Below, one piece after another: positions 1 through 27,046 of a stretch of DNA of 46,920 nt. The stretch covers positions 1-46,920 of IMG/VR virus record IMGVR_UViG_3300037840_000099. One strand, 5' to 3'. This DNA comes from a virus. Made by a program: the position numbers and the translations under genes. The notes under the pieces were generated by a model. The model saw only the letters and a program-made list of their open reading frames with translations, was not told the origin of the DNA and searched no databases. Numbering within the stretch: position 1 is the stretch's first letter; every line of letters starts with the position of its first letter.

Positions 1-3000
1 GCCGTTCCATCAGAAATTCCAACGATAGCGAATCCCACCACCGGATGCCACCAATCATTGGGAAGCAATGCGTCATAAAAACTTGAGCCTATCGTAGAAA
101 ACGTGGCTGCTGATCCAGTGAATGAGTAATGAGTACTGCTGTTGTTATCGATCGCAAAAGCTGATCCGGTCCCCGATAAAGATGCCGTCTTGCCCGCCGT
201 TGGAGTATAGGCCCATCCTCCGAACAAGACCATATCCCCTACGGCCGGTGTAATCGTCTTAACTCCAATGTTGAATATGTTGGTATTGAACCCACCGAGA
301 GAGCCTGCCGTAGTAGTGCCATCTGGAGCTAGAACCCCTGTCGTGATCGTGCACGATCCGCTCCAACTCCCAGGGTTGGTGGTTACGTTGGCTGTCGCAT
401 ATGGAATAACGGCAGGTGCCATATCGGCTTGCGCGCCACGGACTTCCCCTTCCCTTAATTTTCCATTATCAAAGTTTCCCACTGGGCCTATGAATGAGGA
501 GACCCCATATGCAAGGGGTTGATCATTGCTTATGGCGCCGTTGTATTCTTCGTTGACAATACATTTTGCAAAGCCGGAATTCTGAGATAGCACGGTAAAT
601 GGCTGACCGCCGCCAACGGCGGGCAAGAGAGAATTAACCCAGCACGTGCTATATCCCTGCGCGTTGTCCTGTGTTGCTGTAGTGCTTATTTTTATGGCCT
701 GCGGGTTGCCGCTCCAATAACTGATGGAATCATCGAACGATACAACCGCCCGTGGGCACTGCTCACAGAATGAATTATTCTTCACTTCCACGCTATGGCT
801 GCCATGGTCTAGTTTAATGCCGCTTCCCGCAAACACTGAATTTGTAAAAGTGAATACCCCATTGTCGGCGACCGAGTTGCTCCACTGCCTATAGGCGTGC
901 AGAGAGTATGGCTGGCAGTATGCCGTGGTGGTGATCTGGTCGAACACGGAGTAATTTGTATCCACGATGTCAAACCCCATCACCGTGAGATTTCCAGAGC
1001 ATGCCCCCGTTCCTCCGGCGCTCACTCTTTGCAGAACTGCCTTATATCCATTCAGCCTTAGCCCCACTCCATCACTTGTGATGGCTATATCTTTGATAGT
1101 CGGCCCTCCATTGACTTGTGTCCAGATAGCCGCCGCTCCGAATTGAGCAGTAGATACATGCGGGCGAAAAAAGAGAGCCGTAAAAGTTGTGCTGGTGGTT
1201 TGATTCACAAGAATCGCCTCTGGCACGTCCTCGTTATAGCCGGTTATTGTTCCTCCGCTGCTGCTTCCTATGGACCCGATATTTCCCCACATCAAAGTGT
1301 TTGTAAGATAGTCTGAGGTCACTGTCAGAAACGGCCCCGTTGTCGATCCATTTGAATGTGCCCCGTTATAGCTCGAATCCGATACTCCTGCGACAGTAAC
1401 GGGGACCCCTGCTGGTATGTGGCATGAAGATGAGAATGTGCCCGTGGCTACATTGACAACCGTGCGGGAAATGGTAGAAAACGTACATGTTTCCGTCTCT
1501 GCAATCTCAAGCCCAGTGTTGGGGAATATCCCAGCCATACTGGAGGGCGTAATAGTAGCAACAGCTCCAGGGCGCCAGTTGTGCGTAACTCCTGCCACCG
1601 TAATAGTTACGGAGGCGCCTGACACAGCCGTAGAGGCAGCCACGGAGAGAGTCAGAGTAGTTCCAGAAATAGCCGTTATTCCCGCAGATAGATTTCCTCC
1701 TGAAACACCAGCCCCGGCTACTAGAACTGTATCTCCTACTATGAATCCTCCCACGCTAGCGACTGTCAGGCTGGCGGAGGAAAGCCCTATTGTCCCAGTC
1801 GTAATGGCGCACGTCCACATATCCGCTGACACGCCAGTTGTGTCCTGATATGTATCTCCATTCACTCCTGCAGAGCATACTTCAGGAGTTGACGCGCCGG
1901 GGCTTCCAGCGCCGCTGTAAGTTGCCGCCACAGCAGTATTGATCGTACCCGTGATTGGTACGTTCGATGCGGGACGAGCAAAGACTGCCCCTATCTCACC
2001 AAGAGGAGTGAATTGCGCTGCTCCACTAGCACTTCTTCCCTCGATTACTACATTTGTTCCCAAGGGTATATACCATGTTGTACCTACGCGCAGAACGCCC
2101 TGAATCAGAATTGTAACGGGAGCAACCTTGCCGCTATAGTTAAATGTGGTCGGATTAGCCCAATAACAGGCCGTAGGCGAACCGGGAATAATTATTTGCC
2201 CTCCCAAGGAAGGAAGAGCATTCCACGCAGCCTGCAGTGCCGGTCCTATATCTGTGGCTCCGTCACATACCGCACCACCAGCAAAAGAAGGATGGCGAAT
2301 ATCAAGAATCGGCTGCGCGCTGGCGATGGAGGAAGTGAGATTAACATTCTCTGAAGATGTAAGCGTACCCGTCTTCGTCACACCATCATCGAGATGTGAT
2401 TGTGCTGTAATCGCAGTGGCTGTTCCGGCTAGAGGAACCACGCCCGCCGCCTGTCCTGAGATCGTCCCCGATCCTGGAGACCCTGCCGGTATTCCTAAAG
2501 TAAGAGTTTGCGCTGGAGGAGTGCCCGTTATCGTCGCCGTAGCGGGGCTTCCAGGAGCGAGTGTTGTTACGGGTCCAGCCGTAAGCGCACTGCCTGGACC
2601 GGGTGGTCCAGTAGTTCCTCCCGTGGTGACAAATGGCCCTTGCGTGCCGTACGGACTCTGCACGAAGTAATCCACTTGCCCTCCCGCATACCAGAAGCCC
2701 AGATTGCCAGTAGGACCGGTGGTAGCCACGCAAGCGCTTCCAGGCAACTGCACGATGGGCGTATTGGTCGGGCAGGGCGTAGCCATCGTAGCGTCGGTAT
2801 AGGTTGTCACTGGCGTGCAGGACGTTGGAGTGGCTGGATGGGCGCAGATGCTTACGTGGGCATTGGCGAGGATCAGTGATTGCGGAAGAGGGCCTCCAGA
2901 TACAGGCACATTAGGCCCCGATGCACGCAGAGGCAAATCGATCCGCACCCCTTGTCCGAGGGCCATCGTCGGCAACAGCATTGCCAAATATAGTGCGAAT

Positions 3001-3008
3001 CTCTTCAT
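1..3008 (-). CDS. Large fibre protein with signal peptide and beta-helix domain; 5' part, gene crosses the window junction
   Basis: This minus-strand frame starts at 3008 behind a good ribosome site (GAGGAGCAG) and stays open to base 1. It continues in frame at 46920 and stops at 46878, giving about 1016 residues in all. The N-terminus is a Sec-type signal peptide: MKR, a hydrophobic core, then ALG before Gln19. Residues about 20-135 match the start of the 727-residue fibre protein encoded at 4146-6329 (GPNVP, GGPLPQ, TYTDAT, LPGS, NLGFWY). From about residue 240 a segment with D-A-LQAAW spacing followed by GGQIIIP looks like a pectate-lyase-type right-handed beta-helix, usual in tailspikes. 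It is most likely a receptor-binding fibre or spike with depolymerase potential. An exported virion fibre is unusual. Confidence is high for the gene and moderate for the role. Confidence 0.85.
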   Translation of the reverse strand, partial: MKRFALYLAMLLPTMALGQGVRIDLPLRASGPNVPVSGGPLPQSLILANAHVSICAHPATPTSCTPVTTYTDATMATPCPTNTPIVQLPGSACVATTGPTGNLGFWYAGGQVDYFVQSPYGTQGPFVTTGGTTGPPGPGSALTAGPVTTLAPGSPATATITGTPPAQTLTLGIPAGSPGSGTISGQAAGVVPLAGTATAITAQSHLDDGVTKTGTLTSSENVNLTSSIASAQPILDIRHPSFAGGAVCDGATDIGPALQAAWNALPSLGGQIIIPGSPTACYWANPTTFNYSGKVAPVTILIQGVLRVGTTWYIPLGTNVVIEGRSASGAAQFTPLGEIGAVFARPASNVPITGTINTAVAATYSGAGSPGASTPEVCSAGVNGDTYQDTTGVSADMWTCAITTGTIGLSSASLTVASVGGFIVGDTVLVAGAGVSGGNLSAGITAISGTTLTLSVAASTAVSGASVTITVAGVTHNWRPGAVATITPSSMAGIFPNTGLEIAETETCTFSTISRTVVNVATGTFSSSCHIPAGVPVTVAGVSDSSYNGAHSNGSTTGPFLTVTSDYLTNTLMWGNIGSIGSSSGGTITGYNEDVPEAILVNQTTSTTFTALFFRPHVSTAQFGAAAIWTQVNGGPTIKDIAITSDGVGLRLNGYKAVLQRVSAGGTGACSGNLTVMGFDIVDTNYSVFDQITTTAYCQPYSLHAYRQWSNSVADNGVFTFTNSVFAGSGIKLDHGSHSVEVKNNSFCEQCPRAVVSFDDSISYWSGNPQAIKISTTATQDNAQGYSTCWVNSLLPAVGGGQPFTVLSQNSGFAKCIVNEEYNGAISNDQPLAYGVSSFIGPVGNFDNGKLREGEVRGAQADMAPAVIPYATANVTTNPGSWSGSCTITTGVLAPDGTTTAGSLGGFNTNIFNIGVKTITPAVGDMVLFGGWAYTPTAGKTASLSGTGSAFAIDNNSSTHYSFTGSAATFSTIGSSFYDALLPNDWWHPVVGFAIVGISDGT

Positions 3009-3015
3009 CTGCTCC

Positions 3016-4167
3016 TCATTGAATCGCGAACAAAGTCATCGTGTGCGAAATCCACCTGATCTGCATAGTCGCGCTCGCTGTCGTCATGTCGAGTTGCATG
3101 TGATCGTAAACGCCGCTCGAAAATGTGCTGTTATTTACCGGTATGAAGCCAATCGGAAGCCCAGAAGTCGCATCTACCACGGAGTATGTTATCGGGAGCG
3201 CCCCCGCGGTCACGTCATAAATCGTGAAATAGTCATAGAAAGCGCATGCGGTTACGCTAGAGAATGAGCATCCCGGCATCCGATGATCGTAGTTGCGCGT
3301 GCGGTAACAATGACCTTGTGTCAGTGGATACGTGGTCAGCGTGGGATTCACACCGTCAATGTCTATCAGCTTCACGGTCTGCCATGAACTGCAATTCTGC
3401 GGGCAGCGCTGGAACATCTGAACGGTGGAGTTCCAATGCCAGCCCCAGCCGAAGAACGCACCCGTCCCCGCTCCGTAAGCCGTAGGGCTAGAGTTGATGT
3501 TGGGTTCAAACTCTATATCGTGGGTATTGCTCAGGTTGTCCACGCAGAAGTACTGGTCAAAGTAGACATTCGTCACTGCATCGAGCGCCGTCGAATTCGA
3601 TACGAAGACCGAAGTAGCCAGCACATCCGAATTGCCGTGGCTGGAAGCAGTAGTCTCAGCAAACGTGAATGTGCCGTTGGAGACGCATGCGGCCGGAGAG
3701 AGTCCAGAGTATAGGGTCGCCATGGCGTTAAACGTATCTCCGGTGCATACAGAGTCACTCCCGCTGCCCCCGTAGGTGGCCGTCACGGCGCTGGGAGAGT
3801 CGGTGCCTCCTGAACCATTGCCATTGTCCATCGCGGCCGTCCCGGTGCCCGTAATCGTCGCTGATACTGATCCTTGAGTCGCGCATCCAGCCGCAATAGC
3901 GGCCGTCGCAATTGCAGAGGTTGCATAGAGTTGCCCGACTGGGAAGCCTACCGGCGTGATGGTTGTTCCACCTGTGCAACCGGTTCCGACATTGCCCAAG
4001 GTCTTCTTAACCGCAGTATTGCCAAGAGAATCATTGGCGTTAGAAGTGGCCGTCTCGGTATAGATAACGTTCACGACTCCATTGGGGCTTGCGTGCACGT
4101 AGTTGGAGTACTGCCCGTAGGCAGGAAGGCCAGCGATAAGGAGAATCAGTGCCCCGCGATGTTCCAT
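3016..4167 (-). CDS. Exported fibre-associated protein, 383 residues
   Basis: The start at 4167 is chosen because GGGAGGG lies upstream; it overlaps the end of the preceding fibre gene by 22 bases. A frame open further upstream is only a shadow of that gene. The N-terminus looks like a short signal peptide (MEHRG, ALILLIAGL core, AYG before Gln19). The mature part is rich in Ser, Thr, Gly and Asn, with many Cys residues that could pair as disulfides (for example in CVDN, RCPQNC and MPGCSF contexts), which fits an oxidising compartment. It lies between two large fibre genes and is probably a fibre, spike or chaperone-like partner. No family was recognised. Confidence 0.75.
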   Translation of the reverse strand: MEHRGALILLIAGLPAYGQYSNYVHASPNGVVNVIYTETATSNANDSLGNTAVKKTLGNVGTGCTGGTTITPVGFPVGQLYATSAIATAAIAAGCATQGSVSATITGTGTAAMDNGNGSGGTDSPSAVTATYGGSGSDSVCTGDTFNAMATLYSGLSPAACVSNGTFTFAETTASSHGNSDVLATSVFVSNSTALDAVTNVYFDQYFCVDNLSNTHDIEFEPNINSSPTAYGAGTGAFFGWGWHWNSTVQMFQRCPQNCSSWQTVKLIDIDGVNPTLTTYPLTQGHCYRTRNYDHRMPGCSFSSVTACAFYDYFTIYDVTAGALPITYSVVDATSGLPIGFIPVNNSTFSSGVYDHMQLDMTTASATMQIRWISHTMTLFAIQ

Positions 4168-6329
4168 GTTACCGACCCTCCCGGAGTGATTGGCGATGCC
4201 GTGGTATTGCATACTCTCCAATTGAATGTGTTGGACGTGGGAAAGAATGTGAAGCTCAACCCTCCAGTTGATCCCCACCCAGTGACTGCCGAAGTGTCGG
4301 TAGTGGGCGTGACTGAGAATGATGACGTAGTGGCGACCCCGGTCATCGTAGTGCCGGTGCTCGACGTGCAGGTATTGGCCGCTATCAGGGTCGTTCCCGT
4401 GGTGATCTGGATGTTGGCTATACCGCTGCTGCCGCAACCAGTGCATCCTCCTGTGACCGTCAGCGCTCCCGTGATCCCTACAGTACTGCCAAAAGAAGCG
4501 GCACCCGCTACGCCAAGCGTTCCTCCCATTGTCTCGTTGCCCGTGATAGCCAAATCGCCTGAGCAATCGAGCAGCATCAGATTGATCGAACCTGCCGAGT
4601 TCTGCACGTTGAATGCATTCGAGGCAGAAGGGCCGCAATGAGTCGCTAGAAACAATCCGTTCGGGTAGGACAGTTGCCCTACATCCAAGCCTGCGAAGTT
4701 CCCCCCAACCTGCTGGAATACCGTGCCCGTAACGCTCTGGTAGGTATTGTTGTCTGCTGTAAGAGTCCCAGCCTCGTTATAGAAGACGTGATCTCCGATG
4801 CCATCAAACGTGCTGTTGGACACTTGCCAGCGCCCCTGCGTGACCATCGCCTCGTGAATGATGTTGGTGAACTGGCTATTGGTGACGGAAACATCATTGC
4901 CGCTCGATGAAGATGCGCCGAAGCCCTGATAGTAGTTGTTGCAGATCAGATTGCCCACTACGATGTGGTTGGTCTGATTCTGCAACCCTACGCACGAGCC
5001 CGTGGAGCCCGTCGTTCCGTAGTCGATGGTCACATTGGAGATGCCCACGTTATTCATACTCGTGGACCCACCGTCGATCTGGATGCCGTTATTTGACATC
5101 GCACCGATGTTCCCATCCGAGATTTCGATATATGAACTGATCTGATCCTGCGCGGAGAGGATGATGCCGTTCGTGTCTCCTGCCGTCGCCAATGGCTGAA
5201 TGGAGAAGTGTGAATAGACGTTCATGGCTGATGGAGCATAGGGATCAGATTTGTCGATGAACGAATCTATGGAATGTCCTCTCTCGTAGTCTCCATACCA
5301 CGCTGAATTAGTGCCCTTGAGAATTGATCCGTGCTGATTGAACACGCCGTAAGTGTTGCGGATGCGAGCGTTGTCCACGTTCTCTACCAGAAAATCATGA
5401 TTCGGCGCGCTCAAGCTATATCCAAGGGCAACGATGTTTTCAATGAGGGGAGATTGAACTTGTGCGGCACCAATCACCTGTCCACTGTTGGAAATGCTCA
5501 AAGCATCTTCCGCCGTGCCACCGTGCCCTGCAATGTATGTTGGCCCGACATCAATACCAAGATTGCGGATGGTAAAGAAGTTCGCTCCCTGTATCGCAGA
5601 TACGGTGCCCTGAATGATCGTTCCGCCTGTCAGCGCGGTAGGCGCGGTCGCCGAATTGAACCATGGCATTCCCGAGCCTTCGATGTCGATGCTGGGAGTA
5701 GACAATGGCGTGACAATGCCACTTTGATAGGTTCCGACAGACAGCTTCACCACTCCTCCGCCAGTTGGCAGAAGCGCGATGCATGCCGCTACCGTGCTGG
5801 TAGTGGGGCAGTTCACGATGGGCAGCGAGGACTCTAGACTATTGAGCGTGGCAATCTGATTCGCTGTGCCTGACCAGAGCAGAGGTCCGTTCATGGTCTG
5901 CGTTCCAGTCGTCACGGTAGAGACGTAATTCCCGCCTCCATTCAGGCCTGTAACGGTATAAGGCCCATACGTTCCATAGCTGCTGGTGACGATGTAATCG
6001 ACCGTGCCGCCTCCATACCAGAAGCCGATGTTTCCCAGAGTCCCAGCAAGGGCTGAGCATGTACTCCCCGGCAGGTTGACGATCTGCTGCGTTCCCGGGC
6101 AGGGAGTGGTTGCAGTGGCGTCTGTATAGGTGGTCGTATATGTGCATGACGACAGTGTGGCGGGATGATTGCAGATTTGGATGGTCGCGTTCGAGAGCCA
6201 CAATGCCTGCGGTAATGGACCTCCCTGCATGGGCACATTGGGGCCAGCGGTGAATAGGGGAATATCCACGCGCACGGCCTGCGAGAATGCCAGTGGAGCG
6301 AATAGAAACAGGAAAAGTATGCGCTTCAT
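4146..6329 (-). CDS. Tail fibre/spike with signal peptide and pectate-lyase-like fold, 727 residues
   Basis: The ATG at 6329 overlaps the upstream stop as ATGA, with GAGG upstream. A Sec-type signal peptide (MKR, LFLFLFAPL core) ends AFS before Gln17. The N-terminal region of about 115 residues is shared with the 1016-residue fibre. At about residues 190-205 the pattern GGGVVKLSVGTYQSG is typical of the first turn of a pectate-lyase-type beta-helix. Repetitive strand segments with many Asn/Gly turns follow to about 560. The last 140 residues (ITGNETMGGTLGVAGAASFG and a Thr/Ser-rich end) look like a phage fibre C-terminal region. The likely role is host-surface polysaccharide recognition or cleavage. 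Secretion of a fibre is unexpected. Confidence 0.8.
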   Translation of the reverse strand: MKRILFLFLFAPLAFSQAVRVDIPLFTAGPNVPMQGGPLPQALWLSNATIQICNHPATLSSCTYTTTYTDATATTPCPGTQQIVNLPGSTCSALAGTLGNIGFWYGGGTVDYIVTSSYGTYGPYTVTGLNGGGNYVSTVTTGTQTMNGPLLWSGTANQIATLNSLESSLPIVNCPTTSTVAACIALLPTGGGVVKLSVGTYQSGIVTPLSTPSIDIEGSGMPWFNSATAPTALTGGTIIQGTVSAIQGANFFTIRNLGIDVGPTYIAGHGGTAEDALSISNSGQVIGAAQVQSPLIENIVALGYSLSAPNHDFLVENVDNARIRNTYGVFNQHGSILKGTNSAWYGDYERGHSIDSFIDKSDPYAPSAMNVYSHFSIQPLATAGDTNGIILSAQDQISSYIEISDGNIGAMSNNGIQIDGGSTSMNNVGISNVTIDYGTTGSTGSCVGLQNQTNHIVVGNLICNNYYQGFGASSSSGNDVSVTNSQFTNIIHEAMVTQGRWQVSNSTFDGIGDHVFYNEAGTLTADNNTYQSVTGTVFQQVGGNFAGLDVGQLSYPNGLFLATHCGPSASNAFNVQNSAGSINLMLLDCSGDLAITGNETMGGTLGVAGAASFGSTVGITGALTVTGGCTGCGSSGIANIQITTGTTLIAANTCTSSTGTTMTGVATTSSFSVTPTTDTSAVTGWGSTGGLSFTFFPTSNTFNWRVCNTTASPITPGGSVTWNIAGH

Positions 6330-8122
6330 TGCTGGCCTCTCAAGTATGCATCTATGTCGAATGGGGCAATCTTCTGACGGAATGCGCTCCCGGGAGGATA
6401 GACAGGAGTCTCCATAGGCTGACCTCTGAATGCGCTTCCGGCAGGATAGATGTGTGCCGTAGTCGGCTCAGGCGACGGTGCGGGAACATCGGGAGCCGGA
6501 AGCAGACCACGAATACTGCCAGAACTCGGTAATGGCTGTCCCTGCATTTCAAGCCTCTGCGGCCGAGTGGGAATGATGCGTGTCGTTTCTCCCGGAGCAG
6601 GTGCTGGACGGTAAGCGATGTAGGGGCGTGTCTCACCTCGAGAGGCCATAGCAGGGAGTTGGAGGTGTGGCTGCGGAGGCATGGTGCGAATCGAGGTAGA
6701 TTCTGGCGGTTCCACATAGGGACGCCCGTACCGAATCATTGGCTGCGTTTCCCCGCCTCCGGCTGTTGCTGGCAGCGCGGCCTGTGCTGGTGGGGCTTGC
6801 CCGGTGCGGATGGTACGCTCGAAGTGAGGGATTCCATTCTGCCCTTCGGTAGCTTCAAGTGTTGTCGGTCCTCCGCCCATCCTGAATTGAGCGTTGGTGG
6901 ATGTGGATGCAGGAAGTTGGCGAGGAGGAGTCACGTTGGGCATTGCCGATGCAGGAGCCCTGAAATCCGGCTTAGGACCAGCAGTGCGGAATGCCTCACG
7001 AATCGCCACATCGGTAGGATTGGCGCTCAGATAACGACCGGCTGCCACATCTCGAGCGATTGACCCAGCGAGTGGAATATTGCTCAGGGGTTTAGTAAGG
7101 CTTACATCTTTGAGTTTCGAGAATCCAAATGCTTCCTTGGGTTCGGCAGCAGTGGTGCGCCCCGCCACAGTATCGCCAATGCGCGCTACTTGACCGAATG
7201 TCTTGCGGATTAGCTTCGGATCAACGCCCGCCTCTTCCAGATGTGGGTCCAATGCTTGCTGTACTTGCTTTTCGCGTTGAATCACTTCAGCCTGAGTCTT
7301 ACCTTTCTGCTTGGCAAGTTGCTCCGCTTCTGGTCCCCCCTTGCGAAGCGTTCGTAGATCGGCAGAAAGTTGGCCGCGCTCATCCTCCAGTGCCTGAACT
7401 GTAGTGGGACCATCCGGCCCTTGAACTTGCTTGTTCCCAATCGCATCAATTGTCTTCTTGTATGGCCCCCATACTTCATTACGTGCACTGCCGCCGATGC
7501 CTGCTTTCGCTTGAAGTTCTGCCTGAGTTCTAACTCCCTGGAGAAAGGGACGGGCGCCTTCACCGGCTTGAACTGTGGGAATACCCCTTTTAGACCCGGG
7601 CGTTACACGCAAGCCCCTCAATAGAGCGGCGTCTGGGTCGCCTATGGCCGCGCTTCTGATGGCCTCTCCTGCTACTGGAGCCACTCGCCCTATACCTTTG
7701 AGTGCCCCTGCGGCAGCTAATTGGCTGGCAATGCCTCCTGCCGCGTATGCAGGATTCTCCTTAATGGCATTTGTCGTTTCTTTCTGTCCTTGCTGCGCCT
7801 CAAGCTGGATGGGAAGATTTTGCCTCAATTGTCCACCAGCAGGTGCAGTCGTAGGGTACATCCCCCCCGGAGCCATACCAGTTGAAACAAAGGGCTCGCC
7901 CATCTTCGCAGCGGTGTCAATTGGATGCCGCATCATGTCTGGAATTGTATGGATGAAGCCGTTGCCGAACTCACCGGGAGCCATAACTTTGTTCAATGTC
8001 GGCTTAGGCTGTGTGATCTGCGGACGGGATGACGTGCGGATAGCATTAGACACTTCCGCATCGCTCATATTGTCGGGAAACTCGACAATCTTTCCATCCG
8101 GCATCTGCACGTTTTTGGGCAT
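6326..8122 (-). CDS. Putative internal virion/ejection protein, 598 residues
   Basis: The start at 8122 overlaps the upstream stop (TAATG). The first 32 residues contain a short module seen at the start of many podovirus internal proteins: PDGKIVEFPDNMSDAEVSNAI. The middle is Ala/Gly-rich with a hydrophobic stretch at about residues 130-150 (AYAAGGIASQLAAAGAL) that could insert in membrane. A charged, helix-prone segment at about 255-310 (ERGQLSADLRTLRKGG, VIQREKQVQQALD) follows. The C-terminal third is a Pro-rich, low-complexity region with repeats of the type YPPGSAFR and YPAGSAFR. Its place between ejection-type proteins and fibres supports a virion role. No enzymatic domain was recognised. 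Confidence 0.7.
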   Translation of the reverse strand: MPKNVQMPDGKIVEFPDNMSDAEVSNAIRTSSRPQITQPKPTLNKVMAPGEFGNGFIHTIPDMMRHPIDTAAKMGEPFVSTGMAPGGMYPTTAPAGGQLRQNLPIQLEAQQGQKETTNAIKENPAYAAGGIASQLAAAGALKGIGRVAPVAGEAIRSAAIGDPDAALLRGLRVTPGSKRGIPTVQAGEGARPFLQGVRTQAELQAKAGIGGSARNEVWGPYKKTIDAIGNKQVQGPDGPTTVQALEDERGQLSADLRTLRKGGPEAEQLAKQKGKTQAEVIQREKQVQQALDPHLEEAGVDPKLIRKTFGQVARIGDTVAGRTTAAEPKEAFGFSKLKDVSLTKPLSNIPLAGSIARDVAAGRYLSANPTDVAIREAFRTAGPKPDFRAPASAMPNVTPPRQLPASTSTNAQFRMGGGPTTLEATEGQNGIPHFERTIRTGQAPPAQAALPATAGGGETQPMIRYGRPYVEPPESTSIRTMPPQPHLQLPAMASRGETRPYIAYRPAPAPGETTRIIPTRPQRLEMQGQPLPSSGSIRGLLPAPDVPAPSPEPTTAHIYPAGSAFRGQPMETPVYPPGSAFRQKIAPFDIDAYLRGQQ

Positions 8123-9537
8123 TATTTCTTGATCTCCTCAATCTCGCCGGTTTCTGGATTCCAGCGATGCGTTGCCGCTGGGGCTGCGGATGGCGCGGAC
8201 GATCCTTGACGTTGCTCGCCACGCTTCGCCGCTCCCGCGATCATAGTCATAGTGGTGACCATATCGTTGCGCTGCTGCGGCGTGAGAGATTGACCATTTG
8301 CAACCTTGGTAAAGAGTGCTTCGACATCTCCAAGAGAACTGCGCGTCCCCCCGAATAGCTTCAATTCGCGATCATTGAGGCGAATCTTACCCATAGATTC
8401 CGGCTTCGTTGCGCCGATATAGTGCATGAGCATGGCTGCATCATTGGTTGGGCTCGGACTGGCCGCGAATTGCTTCATGAGGTTTAATTCACTATCGAGA
8501 TTTTCGCTCTGCTTCTGTTCTGCCTTCTGCTCTTTAACTCCTGCCGCATTCTGTGCTCCAAGTTGAGTAGCGCTCATTGAGCCCGGAGTGATTGTTTGGC
8601 CGGGATGCAGCGTTTCAACTTGACCACCGGGCGTGACCACCGTGATCTGTGCAGGACGCTGCGGAGCTTGATTTGCAGCAGAGTATTCCTTGCGTGCCAT
8701 GAGGCGATTGTGGGCGCTATCGGGAAGATTGTTGTCCTTGATGTAATCCTTGTAGAACTGCTCAAAATCATTGCCTTCTTTCTCTGGTGGCTGAACGCGC
8801 TTGAATGCCGTGGCGGTCTGGCCAGCGAGGCGCATTTGACCGGAGTTCTTCTCGACCTCGACAGGCTCTCCATTTGGACCCGTATAGTCCTTGGCAATTT
8901 CCCAGCTTTCCTCTTTAGGCTTTGGCTGTGGATTCTTGAGTTCTTCTGTCGCCGCTTGCTCATGCGCGGTCTGCGCTTGTGTGAACGGAATGCGGGCCTG
9001 CGTCTCTGCCGTTTGCGCCTGTTCGTGACCGGCCTGCGCTTCCTTAACCCCCTCAGTCTCCTCATTGCCGATCTGCTTATTAACGCCACGCAATTCCTCC
9101 GCATGGTGGTAAGCCGTCCCGGGGATAGCCGCTGCGATACCAGGAGCTACTGCGGATATGCCGATGTCGCCGAGAGTCGCGCCAACCTGACCAAGTCCGC
9201 CCAGAATCTTGCCAAGGAGAGGATGATTCTGCCCAAACTGCGACCCTGTCACTTTGCCATAAATCTGCGATTCGCCGGGGCCGGTGGTCATCAGTCGCGT
9301 GCGCTCTGCTTTATCTGCATCCAATGTTCCGCGTGGTCCCTTTACCGTTGGAGGCGTGATGGCAAGGTTAGGCGCATTTGTCGGTTGCGGCATGTTGATG
9401 GGACCGGGAGCAGCCATTTGTGGGCCAGCGGGCAAGCCAAGATGCTCAGACATGGGATTTTGCGCCTGATTGCCGAGCGTGATCGCTAAGTTGCGGCGAA
9501 CTTCTTCAGGGTCGAGTTGGAGTCCAGTGGTTGCCAT
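8122..9537 (-). CDS. Putative internal virion protein, 471 residues
   Basis: The start at 9537 follows an AGGA ribosome site, and the stop shares one base with the next start. The N-terminal 90 residues are Pro-rich. A glycine/alanine-rich hydrophobic segment (LGGLGQVGATLGDIGISAVAPGIAAAIPG, about residues 112-140) is followed by a long charged coiled-coil-prone region with repeated Gln, Ala and Thr (EAQAGHEQAQ, ETQARIPF, AQTAHEQAA). The end is charged. The architecture of disordered, amphipathic and coiled-coil parts resembles podovirus ejection proteins, and so does its location after the tail-hub genes. Assignment rests on context only. Confidence 0.65.
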   Translation of the reverse strand: MATTGLQLDPEEVRRNLAITLGNQAQNPMSEHLGLPAGPQMAAPGPINMPQPTNAPNLAITPPTVKGPRGTLDADKAERTRLMTTGPGESQIYGKVTGSQFGQNHPLLGKILGGLGQVGATLGDIGISAVAPGIAAAIPGTAYHHAEELRGVNKQIGNEETEGVKEAQAGHEQAQTAETQARIPFTQAQTAHEQAATEELKNPQPKPKEESWEIAKDYTGPNGEPVEVEKNSGQMRLAGQTATAFKRVQPPEKEGNDFEQFYKDYIKDNNLPDSAHNRLMARKEYSAANQAPQRPAQITVVTPGGQVETLHPGQTITPGSMSATQLGAQNAAGVKEQKAEQKQSENLDSELNLMKQFAASPSPTNDAAMLMHYIGATKPESMGKIRLNDRELKLFGGTRSSLGDVEALFTKVANGQSLTPQQRNDMVTTMTMIAGAAKRGEQRQGSSAPSAAPAATHRWNPETGEIEEIKK

Positions 9538-10464: not shown

Positions 10465-11015
10465 CAATTCCTCTTCGGCGGATTTGCGCCACGCCACGGT
10501 ATCGGCCCAAACCCTGAAATCTGGCTTGCCGTCCCTGTCCCTGACCCCATGCCCTGCGGAATCGGCGGCTGCTCTGTTCCGATTGCCGCTATAGGCACGC
10601 CTGTGGCTCCGCCGTGGTACTGTGGCGCGCTCGCTGGGCTGGTGGGGTAGTCAGAGTATGCCCGGTAGTACAGCGGCTGCGTACCGACCGGAATCCGTGC
10701 ATCCCGCGACGGTCCCATGTGGTGCGTGATCGGTGCCGAGAATCCTGGATCCGTTGCGTATTGGACGTGATACTGAACGCCGCGGTAGAGATTCTGATTG
10801 TTGTCCACGATCTGCACATGCGCCACGCCTGCGCCTGCCGTCACGGAGACGGAGTTAATCTGCGGTGGAGGGGAATTCTGCGACGCCGTTAGGCTACTGT
10901 TTGCCTGCGTGCTCAAATTGCCTAACTGCTTCTGGATGTTGCGAAAAGCATCAAAGATGTACTTGCCCCACTCCGGCATGTTGCGCACGGCCTGTACGTT
11001 CGGATCGCTAGGCAT
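10464..11015 (-). CDS. Tail-associated protein with fibronectin-III/Ig-like region, 183 residues
   Basis: The start at 11015 is chosen because it overlaps the stop of the hub gene as TGATG; an in-frame start 39 bases earlier would lie inside that gene. Residues about 10-40 (MPEWGKYIFDAFRNIQKQLG) form a predicted amphipathic helix. Residues about 55-135 alternate beta strands with a fibronectin-III-like cadence (INSVSVTAGAGVAHVQI, YHVQYATDPGFS, PLYYRAYSDYP). The C-terminus is Gly/Pro-rich and disordered. It is probably a tail or hub accessory protein mediating contact with another component. Confidence 0.6.
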   Translation of the reverse strand: MPSDPNVQAVRNMPEWGKYIFDAFRNIQKQLGNLSTQANSSLTASQNSPPPQINSVSVTAGAGVAHVQIVDNNQNLYRGVQYHVQYATDPGFSAPITHHMGPSRDARIPVGTQPLYYRAYSDYPTSPASAPQYHGGATGVPIAAIGTEQPPIPQGMGSGTGTASQISGFGPIPWRGANPPKRN

Positions 11016-14000
11016 CAGAATCCTCCCGTAGAAGAGCCGCGCACGCCAGACCAAGGAGCCTTGGCCATGTTGATTACCAGCTTCTGCAACTTAAAGTTGC
11101 TGTCCTGACTGCCAGCAAGCGGCTGCGCCTGAATGGTGAACGCGCAGCGGGTCGTCTCCACATTGATCCCAAAGTCCATATCAAACTGCGGGTCGGAAGA
11201 GAGCGGGTACTGCGCGCTTTGAGGGAACATGTTGGACAGCGATGCCGCAAGAGGAATAATCGACCACGTTCCGGTCCCTGAGATGTACGCCTGCGCCATG
11301 GTGTAGACATGCCGGTGACTCATTACTTGAAGAGCCTGCTCCATCTCGTGGGAAACAAAGAAGTAAGTTGTGTAGCTGGCCGGAATCACGCCGAAATCAT
11401 CGTCGTGGAACTGGAGCGGATTGAGGATATAGCTCTGCGCTGCCCCTGAAAGATTAGCGGCACCGAACACGATCTGAGGCTGCGACACGCCAGCCCGATA
11501 CATAAGTTCCCCACAGTAGGCCGCCAGCGTCCACATCGTCCATTTGCGCGTGAGGTCGGAAACGATCATCTTCCCAGTAAAGGAGATGTGGATAGGGGGA
11601 TTCTCCGCAATCGCTGCTCCATCGATATTGCGGTAGTCGAGCACGAGGGTCGTCATCGTGGACCCAATAGGAATCCCGAAATAGCAGCGCTTGGATGACT
11701 CGTAATTCTTGACCCAGCACTTGTACTGGCTGGTTGCCGGAATGGCGTCCCATACGGATTGAATCTCCTGCGAGACTTTGAGCGGCTTCGATCCGGTGAA
11801 GATTTGCGCCCCATCCGGTCCGCTCCACATCATCCAATCCTTGCCGGCGCTGCCGATTCCCTGCGCATTACGCCCCACCGCTGCAATCGAGAAGGCCCCG
11901 CAATTGTCGGCTACGGACGATACGGTCCATCCGCTAGGCTCCGTCTGGCCATTGTCCTGCGTTTCGTGCAGACCGGTTCCGGTGACAAGATAGAGCGCTT
12001 CCCTGATGGTCCCGAAGTTGCGCAGCGGGCTCTGATCGTCTACCGCTCCGATTACGCCGGTATTCTCATCGAATGCCGTCAGGTTGTCCGCATAGCTGAT
12101 CTTGGCTTCAGTGTCGAGATAAGGCTCATCCGTATAGAAGACCTCTATGTCGTCAATCGTGACTACGAGCGCCGGAGAGGCTACCGCAGCGGAAGAGTCT
12201 ACAAATACGGCTAGAATGAGATCGTTCGGGATCGTGGCCGGAGTTTCATTATTGAACGCGACGGTGAAAAAACTTCCCGCAGTGGTCAGGCTTGTCATTG
12301 GGATGCTGGCGGTAGAAGTGAATCCAGTATTCACGCTGGATAGCTGAACCGTAACGCCGATTCCTCCAGTAGCAGCTATGCCGTTCGTTCTGACCCACAA
12401 CCGCACGCTATAGAACTGATTGGGAAGGATAATCGGCGCGTTGAATGCATCCACATAGGCCGATTGGCTGACGTAGCCATATTCAGCCACGGAGCCAAAG
12501 GGCACCGTTACCTGCCATGCCTGCGCGAGCCGAGCAGTCGCCAGCATCCCCGTTCCATAGAGATTGTTGAATGGCTTCCAGCCTAGAGGATTGAGCAGGT
12601 TTCCAGAAAGATAGCCTCCGTCGAATCCCATGTTGAGGAAGTTCGTCACTTTGTTGCGGAATCCCCACCCAAGCAAGCGGGTGGCGTAAGTGAAAAATCC
12701 TGAGCATGGGCCGAGAACAACCTGCGCCGCAAGATCGTTTCCCGGGATGCTGTCGGCCGAGGCCGCATAGAGCGTGTTGTCGGAGAAGTCCATCGTCACG
12801 CTGCTGGTCGTGTTGTCATTTACCTGCGTAGCAGTAGAGACGATCAAGCCATTGATTTGCGCCGGGACGGGGATGTCGAAGAAATATGCCCCGCCTGCCC
12901 CGGTGAACTGCACCAGCCGGGCAACCCAGTTTGGAGCTATAGGAAGCCCTGCGACTGATAGAAACTGGCCGCCATTAGCCACGAATGTAGTAGGCGGAGA
13001 GGGAGCAGTCACAGCACCGTTGGATAGAACACCGCTCACCCTGCATTGATGGATTCCCGGACTAGCCTGTCCATATGGCTTCACGGTCCCGACTGTGGCC
13101 GTACTGGCGTTCGGTCCATACTGCTGATATTGGTAGGTCGTAGTCGAGGGAACCGACGTAACATAGAAGATCCCATCCCACCCGAAACTGACTGTTCCTC
13201 CCGTCCATGTGCCATCGGTATAGGCCAGCGCAATGGTGAAGGTGGTAGGGCTGGGAGCCGTCTGCACGGTGAAATAGTTGAATGCAGGACTTCCGTTGGC
13301 TACAGACGCCAGGGGCCAGATGTACGTCACAGAGCCCGTATCCGCAGCGCTATAGCCCGTGACCACGTTGGTGCCTGTGGGAGCCGTCACGGTGCCAACA
13401 AAGGCATATGTAAATGTAGTGGTCGAAGGAACTGTGGCCACTACCCATTGGCCATTCACTGCTGTAGCCGTCACCGCTGCTACTATGACAATCGATCCGA
13501 TGGAGAGCCCGTGCGCGGCCGATGTGGTGATAGTGACGGCCGTATCGGCAAACGCCACATTCGTAATTGCCGTCCCGACTACGGCGCCATTCACGCCGAG
13601 GATTGTCACCTGATTGTTGGGCAACAGACCATGTGCTGCCGCTGTCGTCACCGTGGCGATTCCGGGCGTATCCTCATTGTTCAGCACTATGGTTGAGATC
13701 GTCGCTACGGTAGTGGTCCCTGCGCCCGCGATCTGCACCTGATAGCCGACCTGAAGACCGTGGGCGGTCGCTGCAGCCCCGGAGACCGTATTACCAGCCC
13801 TCACCAGCGTATTGCCGGAGCTGAGCGCAATCGACCCTCCCGTACCGGTCTGAAGCGTCACTGAATAGAAGTTGCAGGTCAGGATAGTGAAAGTCGGGTC
13901 GATCTGCGCAATGGTGAACGAAGTGTTGAAATTCCCATTCGTATTGCCGGAAACGGTGATGTACTGCCCGACCATAAGGGAGATGTCGGCAGCCGCAAGA

Positions 14001-14611
14001 GTGATGGCAACCGATTGATAATAGACCGTTCCCGAGCCGAATCGCACGATTCCGTTGGTACTAGTGATGGATGAGATCGTGTCTACGTGTGCCCCAAAGA
14101 GCGCCATAGCTACCGCAGGAAGGGCAAAGCTGGTTACAGTCGGCGGTGCTCCGGGACCATCCTGCGTGACGCGAAGGAGATTCGTGCCGTCATACTGGAG
14201 CGGAATGTCCACCCCATGCACGCCATCGGAAAGCGCAATATATTCCCTTCCCTGAGCCGTGCAGGAATTGGCATACGTGGCCCCTGCGGATGCGAAGAGA
14301 AGGGTTGCGACTCCCGGAGAATTGGTCACGTCCTCAACCCACAGCTTGCCGTCGCCAGAGGTCAGGTAGAGATTCTTGATCGTACCAACTGGGGTGACGA
14401 AACTCTTTTCGTAGGTGGTCGGTCCTAGGGATGAGAGTGGAGTTGAGAATAGATGGTTGAAGCCGGGGCGGGTGGATACCGAGCCGGGTGAGAAGACGAC
14501 ATCATTGTTAGCCGGTGATGCCCCCTCAGGCTGATCAGGAGGAGACAGTTCCGTATTCCAGCCTGAAAACAGACTAAGAGGGACATCTACGGAACTGACG
14601 GCATTTGCCAA
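11015..14611 (-). CDS. Tail hub/nozzle-like protein with FCCH-like repeats, 1198 residues
   Basis: The start is a TTG at 14611 with AAGGTGA upstream; the nearest in-frame ATG would delete the conserved-looking start. Residues 15-60 (LFSGWNTELSPPD, then NNDVVFSPGSVSTRPGF) resemble the opening of podovirus tail-nozzle and P22 gp10-type proteins. Residues about 240-480 contain at least three copies of a motif like AAHGLxxGxxVxIxG followed by VNGxxxVxxVPSTTTFxY. This is the FCCH-like repeat often found in phage hub proteins. The middle holds a jelly-roll-like stretch (VRLWVRTNGIA, VTVQLSS), and the end is typical of nozzle proteins (VSHEMEQALQVM). It lies between connector and ejection genes, so a tail-tube extension/nozzle is likely. 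Confidence 0.7.
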   Translation of the reverse strand: MANAVSSVDVPLSLFSGWNTELSPPDQPEGASPANNDVVFSPGSVSTRPGFNHLFSTPLSSLGPTTYEKSFVTPVGTIKNLYLTSGDGKLWVEDVTNSPGVATLLFASAGATYANSCTAQGREYIALSDGVHGVDIPLQYDGTNLLRVTQDGPGAPPTVTSFALPAVAMALFGAHVDTISSITSTNGIVRFGSGTVYYQSVAITLAAADISLMVGQYITVSGNTNGNFNTSFTIAQIDPTFTILTCNFYSVTLQTGTGGSIALSSGNTLVRAGNTVSGAAATAHGLQVGYQVQIAGAGTTTVATISTIVLNNEDTPGIATVTTAAAHGLLPNNQVTILGVNGAVVGTAITNVAFADTAVTITTSAAHGLSIGSIVIVAAVTATAVNGQWVVATVPSTTTFTYAFVGTVTAPTGTNVVTGYSAADTGSVTYIWPLASVANGSPAFNYFTVQTAPSPTTFTIALAYTDGTWTGGTVSFGWDGIFYVTSVPSTTTYQYQQYGPNASTATVGTVKPYGQASPGIHQCRVSGVLSNGAVTAPSPPTTFVANGGQFLSVAGLPIAPNWVARLVQFTGAGGAYFFDIPVPAQINGLIVSTATQVNDNTTSSVTMDFSDNTLYAASADSIPGNDLAAQVVLGPCSGFFTYATRLLGWGFRNKVTNFLNMGFDGGYLSGNLLNPLGWKPFNNLYGTGMLATARLAQAWQVTVPFGSVAEYGYVSQSAYVDAFNAPIILPNQFYSVRLWVRTNGIAATGGIGVTVQLSSVNTGFTSTASIPMTSLTTAGSFFTVAFNNETPATIPNDLILAVFVDSSAAVASPALVVTIDDIEVFYTDEPYLDTEAKISYADNLTAFDENTGVIGAVDDQSPLRNFGTIREALYLVTGTGLHETQDNGQTEPSGWTVSSVADNCGAFSIAAVGRNAQGIGSAGKDWMMWSGPDGAQIFTGSKPLKVSQEIQSVWDAIPATSQYKCWVKNYESSKRCYFGIPIGSTMTTLVLDYRNIDGAAIAENPPIHISFTGKMIVSDLTRKWTMWTLAAYCGELMYRAGVSQPQIVFGAANLSGAAQSYILNPLQFHDDDFGVIPASYTTYFFVSHEMEQALQVMSHRHVYTMAQAYISGTGTWSIIPLAASLSNMFPQSAQYPLSSDPQFDMDFGINVETTRCAFTIQAQPLAGSQDSNFKLQKLVINMAKAPWSGVRGSSTGGF

Positions 14612-17800: not shown

Positions 17801-19075
17801 CTAATAGCCAGTAGGGATTGCTAGAGAATCGCAAAAAAACCCGGCCCTCGGATTATCCATGAACGAATTACAACCCGTCCAGAGATAGAAGAAGGTTGAC
17901 GCACTCAACCCGCCGCTTGCCCCGTACTGCGGGAATACTGTCTGCCCGCCGTACTCGAGGAAGTCAATCGGCTGATTCTCTACCCTGCCCCAGCACTTCA
18001 GGCAGACTCCATCGATCCGCCCCTGTGCGGAATGGATGTTGCCCATGCCTTTGTTGATGATGGGGTAGCCCATGAACGTTCGCGGAGTGTACTTTTTGAT
18101 CATGTCCTGCGAAGAATCTCCGGTGATCTGGTTCTGGATGATGCTTGAAACCTGAATCGCTGTGTTCTCCCATGCCGCCATCTGATCAGGACCGATATTG
18201 ATTTGTAGGTCCAGTTCAAAGGCAGCCGTGGCGCCCATAGCTATCTGCATCTGCGCGGTCAGCTTGCGGGCTGTGGAAGGGGTTATGGGCTGGCTGGAGC
18301 CACTGACGTGCGGCATGACGAGCTTACCTGGATAGCTCGCGCGCGACAGACCGAATGCAGTGCCCGTATTGGCGCTGAATGCAGCCTGAAACAGACCAAA
18401 CAGACCGGAATTAGCCACGCCGGCTGAACCCTTGACATACAGACCATAGCCGGAAGTGACCTGAAATCCCAAAGGACCGCTGAGCCACAGAGTCTTGTTG
18501 GCTGCGTCAACAGACTGCACAACGAAGGTGCCGACGAAGGTGCCCCCGGTAGCAGTCCATACATCCACGGGCTGCTGATCCTGAAACTGGTTGGCATTGT
18601 GGACCAGAACGGAAGTGGCACCGACGAGTGCGGTAGCCGAGGCGGTATCAAGCTGGTTGTCGCCTGCGCCCTGCGTGAAGATCGCTTCCATATAGGTGCG
18701 GAAGTTCTTCATCGCGCGCTTCATCACCAGCTTGGAGTAATCCTCGATTGCCTTCTCATTGGCATTGGTCGAGATTTCCGCCTGCTTGGTCCACTGGCTG
18801 CACTGGAAAAAATACGTTGGGACCAAGGTCATAAAGTCGGTGATAGGCGCAGAACCGAGGCCGAGGTCGCCGCCGTCAGGAGTGTTGGTGGTGAAGGTGC
18901 CGCCAGCCAGAAGCTCAAGCGGGATGCGGGTGGGACGCGAGGACACGACTTCCACGTCGCTGCGCGCTTCGATCTCCGACCAGAGGGTATCGTCCAACTG
19001 GTACAGGAGCGTAAGTTGTGGGCGGACTTTTTCTTTCTGGAGGGCAAATGTCTGGGCTACTGTTCCCTGTGCCAT
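17801..19075 (-). CDS. Major capsid protein, 424 residues
   Basis: The ATG at 19075 has GAGGT six bases upstream; a GTG six bases earlier is less likely. The size, position after a scaffold gene, and composition fit an HK97-fold coat protein. N-terminal strands carry many charged residues (IEARSDVEVVSSRPTRIPLE), and a helix (NEKAIEDYSKLVMKRAMKNFRTY) corresponds to a spine-like helix. Residues about 155-215 look like an inserted beta domain (VDVWTATGGTFVGTFVVQSV). The C-terminal region has a hydrophobic IQVSSIIQNQITG-type segment and an axial-domain-like end. The HK97 fold is inferred, not demonstrated. Confidence 0.8.
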   Translation of the reverse strand: MAQGTVAQTFALQKEKVRPQLTLLYQLDDTLWSEIEARSDVEVVSSRPTRIPLELLAGGTFTTNTPDGGDLGLGSAPITDFMTLVPTYFFQCSQWTKQAEISTNANEKAIEDYSKLVMKRAMKNFRTYMEAIFTQGAGDNQLDTASATALVGATSVLVHNANQFQDQQPVDVWTATGGTFVGTFVVQSVDAANKTLWLSGPLGFQVTSGYGLYVKGSAGVANSGLFGLFQAAFSANTGTAFGLSRASYPGKLVMPHVSGSSQPITPSTARKLTAQMQIAMGATAAFELDLQINIGPDQMAAWENTAIQVSSIIQNQITGDSSQDMIKKYTPRTFMGYPIINKGMGNIHSAQGRIDGVCLKCWGRVENQPIDFLEYGGQTVFPQYGASGGLSASTFFYLWTGCNSFMDNPRAGFFCDSLAIPTGY

Positions 19076-19283
19076 AAACACACCTCAAGTGAGTTCATGC
19101 CACATGCGGCTTGTGCAGCAGCCAATAGAGAGGCGCTGAGTTCCTCTCCATGCGCAATCTTTGGTCATCTTCTGAGTTGATCACTGCGATTGAGCATGCG
19201 TTTTACCGTCTTGACGGAAGGGCAGGCCCCTGGACTCAACTGCAGTCACCTCTTCAGGTAACGACGTGTTCATATTACCACTA
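19076..19283. other. Intergenic region between scaffold and capsid genes
   Basis: About 200 bases without a supportable gene lie between scaffold stop and capsid start, the largest gap inside the late region. On the minus strand it contains a small hairpin (GAGAGG, nine-base loop, CCTCTC at 19128-19148) about 55 bases before the capsid start, and the capsid ribosome site. No T-run follows the hairpin. It could be a transcript-processing or stabilising element that raises capsid expression over scaffold, but no promoter is convincing. Confidence 0.4.
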
Positions 19284-20543: not shown

Positions 20544-20883
20544 TTACTTCCTCCACGTCCCACTTATGCAAAGCAAGGCGACCGATTTCCGCAACGATTT
20601 CGCGATTCTTTCTAATAAGCACCACCGAGGGCGATAGATGGGGATTTGATTCCAGCGGTAGCCCCATGAATTTCCTATGCAGCATCCCCTTTTCATCAAA
20701 TCGAACTGGGTCGATAACCGAAACACGGATTCCGCAATTTTCCCACTCGATAATCTGAGATGGGTGCATCTCCGCCCATAGATCCAAGTCCTCCCAAGGT
20801 CCAAACTTCAATGCTAACTTCGCCATTAATTCTCGCGCCAAACGTGGCGAGATAAGCGATTCTTTCGCATCAAGCATTAGCAT
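20536..20883 (-). CDS. Unrecognised 115-residue protein between portal and scaffold
   Basis: The ATG at 20883 has AGGAG six bases upstream and overlaps the portal stop by 14 bases. The protein is globular and mixed charge (LARELMAKLALKFGPWEDLD, IIEWENCGIRVSVIDPVRFD, LSPSVVLIRKNREIVAEIG). It has neither membrane segment nor signal peptide. It is probably co-translated with portal and scaffold and may assist head assembly. No homologous family was recognised. Confidence 0.6.
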   Translation of the reverse strand: MLMLDAKESLISPRLARELMAKLALKFGPWEDLDLWAEMHPSQIIEWENCGIRVSVIDPVRFDEKGMLHRKFMGLPLESNPHLSPSVVLIRKNREIVAEIGRLALHKWDVEEVNG

Positions 20884-25278: not shown

Positions 25279-26187
25279 CTATTTGCTCTCTAATGTATAG
25301 GTTAGGCTGACTTTCATTGTGCCGGTTCCGGTTGTGTAATTGCCGGTAGCATTGTTGATGAAGATGGGCTGATTGTCGTAGAGCGCTTCTGTCGTATTGG
25401 CCAGATTCGCGCCCGCCAGCTGGATCAGGTTCACCGTGGTTGCGCCGGTAAGGAATGTGGTCGCAATCGTTCCGGAAAGTGCCTGCGTTGTCACAGCAGT
25501 CCCATAGCCAATCGTGATCGCTCCTCCCGATGCATAAGCCGTGCCCGCGCACTCATTGACCAGCGTGGCCTTGAGCACATTGTAGAAATAGCCCACGCCG
25601 GGTGCAGGAAGAATCTGAACAGGCGTCGAAGACAGCGCAAGGATTTGAGCATTGCTGAGTACGACATAGGTCTTGTTGGGCTGGCCTCCGACACGGTTGT
25701 CGAGAACATCCACGCCCGCAGGCAAAGTCGCAGCAGCCAGCATGGCAGCCGTTCCGCCCTCCACAACCCACTCGTTATCAACAATGACCGTTCCGCCACC
25801 CTTGGCATTGGCGTAGTTGATCGCTTCCTGCAGACCCACCGTGCCCGAGCTGATTCTGTCTCCAGCATAGTGCGCGTAAGTGAATGTGCCCGTTACGGTT
25901 GCAGTCATGCCATAGATGTTCGACTGAACGTTGGTGCTCACTGCCGACGGAGTCACGGTATCCACGCCCGCAGCGTTGGCGATGTTGATCGGAGCGGTGG
26001 TCGCCAGAACGCTTACGATGGTTCCATCAGACAGCGGGATGTTCCCGCTATAAACCGTAAGCGTCTCAGAACCAGTCGTCCCCGGACCGGAAGCGACCAC
26101 GAGAGCGGGAGGCCCGCCGACGCCGATCCCACCATAGTTGAAATCTACTGCTCTGTACTGACCTGCGAAGCGTGTGCGGTTTGCCAT
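25279..26187 (-). CDS. Putative virion protein, beta-rich, 302 residues
   Basis: GGAGGAAGCT precedes the ATG at 26187. The protein is uncharged and beta-rich, with typical phage surface-protein composition (VSVLATTAPINIANAAGVDT, TATVTGTFTYAHYAGDRIS). Residues about 115-150 (LQEAINYANAKGGGTVIVDN) resemble one turn of a beta-helix start. The C-terminus resembles a jelly-roll or fibre-like region (NTTEALYDNQPIFIN). Its position between terminase and portal suggests a head decoration or head-fibre protein. No membrane segment is present. Confidence 0.6.
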   Translation of the reverse strand: MANRTRFAGQYRAVDFNYGGIGVGGPPALVVASGPGTTGSETLTVYSGNIPLSDGTIVSVLATTAPINIANAAGVDTVTPSAVSTNVQSNIYGMTATVTGTFTYAHYAGDRISSGTVGLQEAINYANAKGGGTVIVDNEWVVEGGTAAMLAAATLPAGVDVLDNRVGGQPNKTYVVLSNAQILALSSTPVQILPAPGVGYFYNVLKATLVNECAGTAYASGGAITIGYGTAVTTQALSGTIATTFLTGATTVNLIQLAGANLANTTEALYDNQPIFINNATGNYTTGTGTMKVSLTYTLESK

Positions 26188-26705: not shown

Positions 26706-27046
26706 AGAGTCTCCATTGCTCTGGCGTTATTGTCCAGCACTTCTGCCTTGTGAGTTGCCGGACCTGCGCTGGCAGCCTCGGCCGCGGCACGCCGTCTGGC
26801 CACCGGAACATAGCGATTCCCCGATGGCGCAATCTTATCATCAGGCTTTTTGTCGAACGCAGACTGCGCTACCTTCGCCTTCAGCGCTGTCCTGAATTCA
26901 TACAACTCGCCCTCAAGATCATGGATGCGCTTCGATTGTTCCTCAATCATGCCGTGAAGGATCGTGAACTTGGCATCGATTATGTCGAATCCCAGCCAGC
27001 ACTTAATTCTGCCGCGCATATTCATTGAAGGCTTCTGCGTTTCCAT
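26702..27046 (-). CDS. Coiled-coil protein, 114 residues
   Basis: The ATG at 27046 lies inside the end of the terminase gene (25-base overlap). Residues about 22-60 form a heptad-like helix (IIDAKFTILHGMIEEQSKRI, HDLEGELYEFRTALKAKV) consistent with a coiled coil. The C-terminal half is basic and Ala-rich (VPVARRRAAAEAAS). No signal peptide. It might be a terminase or portal accessory protein; context is the only support. Confidence 0.55.
   Translation of the reverse strand: METQKPSMNMRGRIKCWLGFDIIDAKFTILHGMIEEQSKRIHDLEGELYEFRTALKAKVAQSAFDKKPDDKIAPSGNRYVPVARRRAAAEAASAGPATHKAEVLDNNARAMETL

What the first reader, a model, noticed from the sequence alone, without database searches (positions are those of the whole stretch)
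1..6329. Phage fibres carrying Sec signal peptides with Gln at the mature N-terminus
Seen: fibre-type proteins starting at 3008, 4167, 6329 and 46524, plus a secreted protein at 43495, start with a basic residue, a hydrophobic core and a small-residue cleavage site followed by Gln (ALG-Q, AYG-Q, AFS-Q, CGA-Q, LFA-Q). A sixth (42926) ends AHA-I. Known: virion fibres normally assemble in the cytoplasm. Inference: these proteins are exported, with N-terminal Gln open to pyroglutamate formation, and may act in the periplasm or on the cell surface, or be assembled onto virions by an unknown route.
Basis: partly seen in the sequence, partly recalled or inferred. Interest (0 to 1): 0.8.

Follow-up and report, generated by a model that had tools for sequence, protein, structure and literature searches.

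The report
Phage fibres with cleavable secretion signals
A group of soil phages, sharing this feature with a cultured phage of Acidobacteriota, gives its tail fibres and spikes ordinary secretion signals, which implies that these proteins leave the cell interior before they can join the virus particle; I found no description of such a route for tailed phages.

Summary
Fibres F3 (6329) and F1 (3008) carry textbook Sec/SPase I signal peptides (SP); F5 (46524) and F2 (4167) are weaker; the small secreted proteins at 43495 and 42926 are strong. F1 and F3 share a ~110-aa mature domain starting at the Gln. Searching with that domain alone gave 10 loci, every one with an SP-like N-terminus before it: mean pairwise identity is 18.6% in SPs, 62.8% in the domain. 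Sampling relatives through a non-fibre gene gave 46 informative loci: 41 encode SP genes in the fibre region; 32 have one whose mature end reads Q-x(1-4)-R-[VWFYI]-D. SP fibres are cysteine-rich (2.07% against 0.74% for other virion proteins), and in a second family a cysteine pair occurs only in SP-bearing members. Cultured Tunturi_1 (host Tunturiibacter, Acidobacteriota) has five such genes. The rule marks no structural protein tested of T7, P22, N4 or crAss001. Gln at +1 is also the commonest choice in Granulicella (19/55), so alone it is not special. Export is well supported by sequence; docking on virions at lysis is the likeliest reading, not shown.

The parts
4146..6329 (-). F3, first fibre/spike gene after the Cys-free virion-region genes (727 aa); residues 218-372 resemble Salmonella phage tailspikes
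   Evidence: ATGA overlap with the upstream stop
6282..6329 (-). Signal peptide of F3, MKRILFLFLFAPLAFS|Q
5943..6281 (-). Mature N-terminal domain of F3 (QAVRVD..., 4 Cys invariant in 12 sequences)
3016..4167 (-). F2, secreted fibre-type protein (383 aa); resembles the C-terminal part of an SP-bearing 1001-aa protein in G001 (37%)
4114..4167 (-). Putative signal peptide of F2, MEHRGALILLIAGLPAYG|Q (net-neutral n-region, plausible RBS upstream)
3..3008 (-). F1, second fibre with the same N-terminal domain as F3 (62% identical there); C-terminus cut by the contig end
2955..3008 (-). Signal peptide of F1, MKRFALYLAMLLPTMALG|Q
2631..2954 (-). Mature N-terminal domain of F1 (QGVRID...)
46537..46920 (-). 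Fibre-type C-terminus, probably the missing end of F1 (contig ends appear to meet inside F1, with a few bases lost)
   Evidence: joining is inference
45568..46524 (-). F5, fibre-type protein (PHROG virion structural match, 318 aa) with signal peptide MKRIAFIALLMLAGECGA|Q
42926..43495 (-). Secreted orphan protein (189 aa), SP MIKASIRLLICAALVAAPMLFA|Q
   Evidence: no homologue in the relatives
42696..42926 (-). Small secreted protein (76 aa), SP ...PKAHA|I
6326..8122 (-). Cys-free virion-region protein directly upstream of F3
8122..9537 (-). Cys-free virion-region protein, conserved before the fibres in relatives
11015..14611 (-). Conserved virion structural protein (1198 aa) used as the non-fibre anchor for unbiased sampling
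25279..26187 (-). SP-less member of a family whose homologues in G002, G009 and G012 carry an SP plus a cysteine pair
17801..19081 (-). Major head protein
   Evidence: PHROG match
20870..23239 (-). Presumed portal (by size and position; no PHROG match)
27022..28659 (-). Terminase large subunit

Best explanation
The fibre and spike genes of this soil podophage-like lineage, most likely phages of Acidobacteriota, encode pre-proteins with cleavable Sec signal peptides. Made from the late operon, they are exported, cut by signal peptidase I just before a Gln, and folded with disulfide bonds in the oxidising periplasm (strongly inferred). The conserved mature N-terminal domain, which starts at the new Gln (Q-x-x-R-[VWFYI]-D), is a docking module shared by fibres with different bodies. 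It most likely joins the tail of virions when lysis opens the inner membrane, so that receptor-binding fibres are added outside the cytoplasm (inferred). Additional SP-bearing spikes would dock by the same route or act as soluble depolymerases.
For: Relatives found with the SP-less domain: 10 loci from 10 contigs, every one with a Sec-like N-terminus abutting the domain. In the 12-sequence set, mean SP identity is 18.6% against 62.8% for the domain, the -3/-1 residues fit SPase I in 12/12 and the domain starts with Q in 12/12. Unbiased sample by the 1198-aa gene: 41 of 46 informative loci have SP genes in the fibre region; 32 have SP + Q-x(1-4)-R-[VWFYI]-D at about +4.1 to 7 kb; SP genes are 61/290 downstream against 14/352 upstream. 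Cys 2.07% in 27 SP fibres against 0.74% in 45 other virion proteins. In the 25279 family all three SP members have a Cys pair at the same loop and no SP-less member has the pair, p=0.003. Tunturi_1, a cultured podovirus of Tunturiibacter, has five SP-positive genes at 10371-23028, including the annotated tail spike and a virion structural protein. In the window every recognisable fibre/spike carries an SP-like start, so the receptor-binding proteins are probably among them. F3 overlaps the upstream virion-region gene by ATGA.
Against: I know of no virion proteomics for any member, so virion attachment is untested. The domain fold is low confidence (pLDDT 64.6) and has no significant structural match. 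5 of 46 loci show no SP gene by my criteria. Tunturi_3 and Tunturi_4, which infect the same host genus, lack SP fibres in the stretches tested, so export is not required for fibres in this host. The host of the window phage is inferred, not shown.
Confidence: 0.6

Rival explanations
1. The proteins are exported but are not virion parts: secreted spikes/depolymerases and adhesins that act on the host envelope or surrounding polysaccharide during infection, block superinfection, or clear a path for progeny.
For: Same export evidence. F3 has a tailspike-like stretch and one Tunturi_1 protein has beta-helix and chitobiase C-terminal-type domains. Orphan secreted proteins 43495 and 42926 show that this phage also makes small exported proteins.
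Against: Genes sit in the late structural cluster at a fixed place and F3 overlaps a virion-region gene. A conserved N-terminal module with variable bodies is the architecture of virion-anchored fibres. No SP-less alternative fibre was recognised in the window.
Confidence: 0.3
2. The hydrophobic N-terminus is not cleaved: it is a membrane or virion anchor (signal-anchor-like), or a hydrophobic plug that fixes the fibre to the tail.
For: Seven loci have a conserved charged stretch like ERDWPRSTWRGL before the SP, in two of them after an additional hydrophobic segment, so some forms may be membrane proteins.
Against: Length, -3/-1 rule and conserved mature start in 12/12. SP letters diverge freely while the domain is kept, unlike a binding anchor. 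The SP-less members of the 25279 family begin at about the mature position.
Confidence: 0.07
3. Chance or artefact: fortuitous hydrophobic N-termini or host genes on a misassembled contig.
For: Single N-termini of this composition pass the rule 1-24% of the time when shuffled.
Against: Repeated at the same place in dozens of contigs and in an isolate genome; no structural protein positive in four control phages.
Confidence: 0.03

Closest known systems
Tail fibres/tailspikes of podophages (P22 gp9, T7 gp17, Salmonella phage tailspikes)
   Same: Conserved N-terminal module plus variable body; late cluster; body of F3 aligns with Salmonella phage tailspikes.
   Different: Known fibres fold in the cytoplasm (own knowledge) and have no signal peptide (T7 and P22 negative here); here there is a cleavable-type SP and Cys enrichment.
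Filamentous phage adsorption protein pIII (Ff phages)
   Same: A phage receptor-binding protein made with a Sec signal peptide and matured in the envelope (own knowledge; not tested here).
   Different: Ff phages assemble at the inner membrane by extrusion; this is a terminase-packaging tailed-type dsDNA phage.
Sec-exported endolysins / SAR endolysins and spanins of tailed phages
   Same: Tailed phages are known to use the host Sec system for lysis proteins (PMC6116005); my scorer detects several of them.
   Different: Those are lysis proteins, not fibres or spikes.
Tunturiibacter phages Tunturi_1 and Tunturi_2 (PP887698, PP885685)
   Same: Cultured podoviruses with the same feature: a run of Cys-rich SP-positive tail spike/virion genes. 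The words 'signal peptide', 'fiber' and 'spike' do not occur in the describing paper.
   Different: 63-kb genomes, only scattered gene similarity to the window; no relative of the F1/F3 domain detected.

Membership tests
Sec/SPase I secreted proteins | Positive n-region, hydrophobic core, small residues at -3 and -1 | tested here: met
   12/12 domain fibres fit -3/-1; F2 has a net-neutral n-region
Sec/SPase I secreted proteins | SP sequence diverges while the mature protein is conserved | tested here: met
   18.6% against 62.8% mean pairwise identity
Sec/SPase I secreted proteins | Cleavage and export in cells | not testable with these tools
   Needs N-terminal mass spectrometry or a PhoA fusion
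Phage tail fibre/tailspike proteins | Conserved N-terminal anchor with variable C-terminal body | tested here: met
   Domain conserved, bodies differ
Phage tail fibre/tailspike proteins | Beta-helix or other fibre body | tested here: met
   F3 residues 218-372 match Salmonella tailspikes, 30-32% identity, E 4e-5 to 8e-4; no PDB sequence match
Phage tail fibre/tailspike proteins | Present on the virion | not testable with these tools
   No proteomics held
Phage tail fibre/tailspike proteins | No signal peptide (cytoplasmic folding) | tested here: not met
   SP present in F1, F3 and relatives; absent in control phages
Caudoviricetes | Terminase and major head protein genes | tested here: met
   TerL and major head protein PHROG matches
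Acidobacteriota phage | Host link | tested here: inconclusive
   +1 Gln habit matches Granulicella and the isolate Tunturi_1 shares the feature; no prophage link: the genome-contig scan found no relative; CRISPR not tested

The most novel reading that the evidence does not exclude
Tailed phages with a two-compartment assembly: heads and tails are built in the cytoplasm, while receptor-binding fibres are exported by Sec, trimmed to a pyroglutamate-capable N-terminus, disulfide-bonded in the periplasm and attached to virions only when lysis mixes the compartments. SP-bearing members of the 25279 family (possible capsid cement, weak fold evidence) would extend this to the head.
Probability: 0.5. 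Interest if true: 0.92.

Novelty: new variant of a known kind. Interest (0 to 1): 0.82.

Why it matters
Tailed-phage fibres are taken to fold and assemble in the cytoplasm. A whole lineage that exports them would mean a different assembly order, disulfide-stabilised receptor-binding proteins, and fibres that reach the periplasm before lysis. A cultured phage with the feature (Tunturi_1) makes it directly testable, and the mature-N-terminus motif gives a handle for finding the receptor-binding proteins of these poorly annotated phages.

Tried and rejected
Pfam and PHROGs on F1-F3: no family. PDB sequence search for F1, F2, F3: none. Genome-contig scan with the domain: no relative, so no prophage host link. 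Structure of the domain: low confidence, fold hits not significant; phage fibre and pectate-lyase entries are frequent in the viral list but E is 0.04 or more. Presumed portal and the 1198-aa protein have no match among cultured phages. Literature searches for SP-bearing tail fibres in tailed phages returned none in the titles, abstracts and passages looked at (101-103); one paper states that phage DGR target proteins lack signal peptides (PMC6199706). Considered and rejected: that +1 Gln is itself a phage invention (commonest in Granulicella too); lipoprotein reading of 46524 (L-A-G-E-C is not a lipobox).

Full report
WHAT IS THERE. The window is a linear IMG/VR virus record of 46,920 bases. 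Its main genes lie on the minus strand and include a terminase and a major head protein. The presumed portal is named only by size and position. F3 and F1 are strong signal-peptide (SP) cases. F5 is weaker, F2 has a net-neutral n-region, and the small proteins at 43495 and 42926 are strong.

CHANCE. My rule combines the von Heijne 1986 cleavage matrix, a hydrophobic core and a positive n-region. It fires on 1 of 70 opposite-strand ORFs. In T7, P22, N4 and crAss001 it marks 5 of 62 proteins, all lysis-type: two Rz-type spanins, Rz1, the N4 endolysin and a crAss001 lysis regulator. No structural protein was marked. Shuffling residues 2-40 of the fibres passes in 1-24% of trials, so one protein alone proves little.

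CONSERVATION. F1 and F3 share a ~110-aa domain (62%) that begins at the Gln. I searched with that domain without the SP. In the broader of two viral scans 10 loci were confirmed, and each has a Sec-like N-terminus directly before the domain. Over 12 proteins the SP segments average 18.6% identity and the domain 62.8%; -3 is A or V and -1 is A, G, S or T in 12/12, and the domain starts with Gln in 12/12. In two of the twelve the best cut could be a few residues away from that Gln (L026, G008). Four cysteines are invariant. This is how real signal peptides evolve, and not how a binding anchor does.

UNBIASED SAMPLE. To avoid choosing relatives by the fibre, I used an alignment of the 1198-aa structural protein (11015-14611) and obtained 77 loci. 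Of 60 analysed, 46 have at least 5.5 kb downstream: 41 of these have an SP gene in that region, and 32 have one with SP plus Q-x(1-4)-R-[VWFYI]-D at the mature end, mostly 4.1 to 6 kb downstream. Long genes are SP-positive in 61/290 cases downstream and 14/352 upstream. Of 35 downstream N-terminal motif hits, 34 follow a hydrophobic segment; elsewhere the motif follows one in 3 of 34. When the Gln is not required in the pattern, all 31 SP-preceded R-[VWFYI]-D hits have a Gln in the six residues before the Arg.

OXIDISING COMPARTMENT. Twenty-seven SP fibres average 2.07% Cys (lowest 1.34%), against 0.74% for 45 SP-less virion proteins. The family of window 25279-26187 is a natural experiment. 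Its members in G002, G009 and G012 carry an SP and a cysteine pair at the same loop. The SP-less members, the window's included, begin at about the mature position and lack the pair (Fisher p=0.003 on distinct sequences). Two SP-less members have cysteines elsewhere, and two keep one of the two positions. Exported Granulicella proteins are not themselves rich in Cys (0.56%), so the enrichment is a feature of these phage proteins and not of every exported protein.

CULTURED PHAGE. Tunturi_1, a podovirus of Tunturiibacter (PMC11924767), has SP-positive genes at 10371, 13940, 15931, 19025 and 19474, including the annotated tail spike and a virion structural protein; Tunturi_2 matches. Tunturi_3 and Tunturi_4 show none in the stretches tested, so this is a property of some phage lineages, not of every phage of that host.

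GLN. In Granulicella tundricola plasmid pACIX901, 19 of 55 predicted SPs have Gln at +1, the commonest residue. So a phage of such a host is expected to show it often. The phage fibres show it more (37/61, p=0.006), and nearly always in the motif-bearing first fibre.

MECHANISM. Shown: SP-like N-termini, their conservation, cysteine enrichment, gene order and the ATGA overlap of F3 with the preceding virion-region gene. Inferred: Sec export, SPase I cleavage, disulfides. Further inferred: docking of the exported fibre on virions at lysis. The argument for docking is that every fibre or spike recognised in the window carries an SP-like start and that a constant N-terminal module heads variable bodies. 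The main rival is that they are secreted enzymes or adhesins. No search of the literature found SP-bearing tail fibres in tailed phages; known Sec use by tailed phages concerns lysis proteins (PMC6116005).

LIMITS. No SignalP, no proteomics, no host link by prophage; CRISPR links were not tested. The domain fold is unresolved. Contigs may include near-duplicates, so the locus counts are not fully independent.

Noticed in passing
window 1-3008 and 46537-46920: The contig ends probably meet inside the F1 gene: F1 lacks its end at the left edge, and the right edge carries a fibre-type C-terminus just before F5; the frames differ, so a few bases are missing.
   Followed up: partly
window 25279-26187; G002, G009, G012 homologues: Family with SP-bearing and SP-less members; model pLDDT 76.6 gives weak Foldseek matches to capsid chains of phages GP4 (8h89_J, prob 0.95, E 0.047) and Pam1 (7eel_H, prob 0.80), possibly capsid cement.
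   Followed up: partly
L066, L078, L079, L083, L091, L112, L132, about 4-5 kb after the anchor gene: Fibre ORFs with a conserved charged stretch like ERDWPRSTWRGL before the signal peptide; in two of them (contigs of L025/L066 and L034/L083) an extra hydrophobic N-terminal segment was seen in frame.
   Followed up: no
window 17162-17749 and 40853-41296: Two endonuclease VII-type genes.
   Followed up: no
window 33405-34289: Radical SAM protein (phrog_9298, E 4e-19).
   Followed up: no
window 42088-42411, 44323-44499, 44518-44856, 45062-45436: Cluster of small membrane-type ORFs, possibly holin/spanin-like lysis genes; no PHROG match for the three tested.
   Followed up: partly
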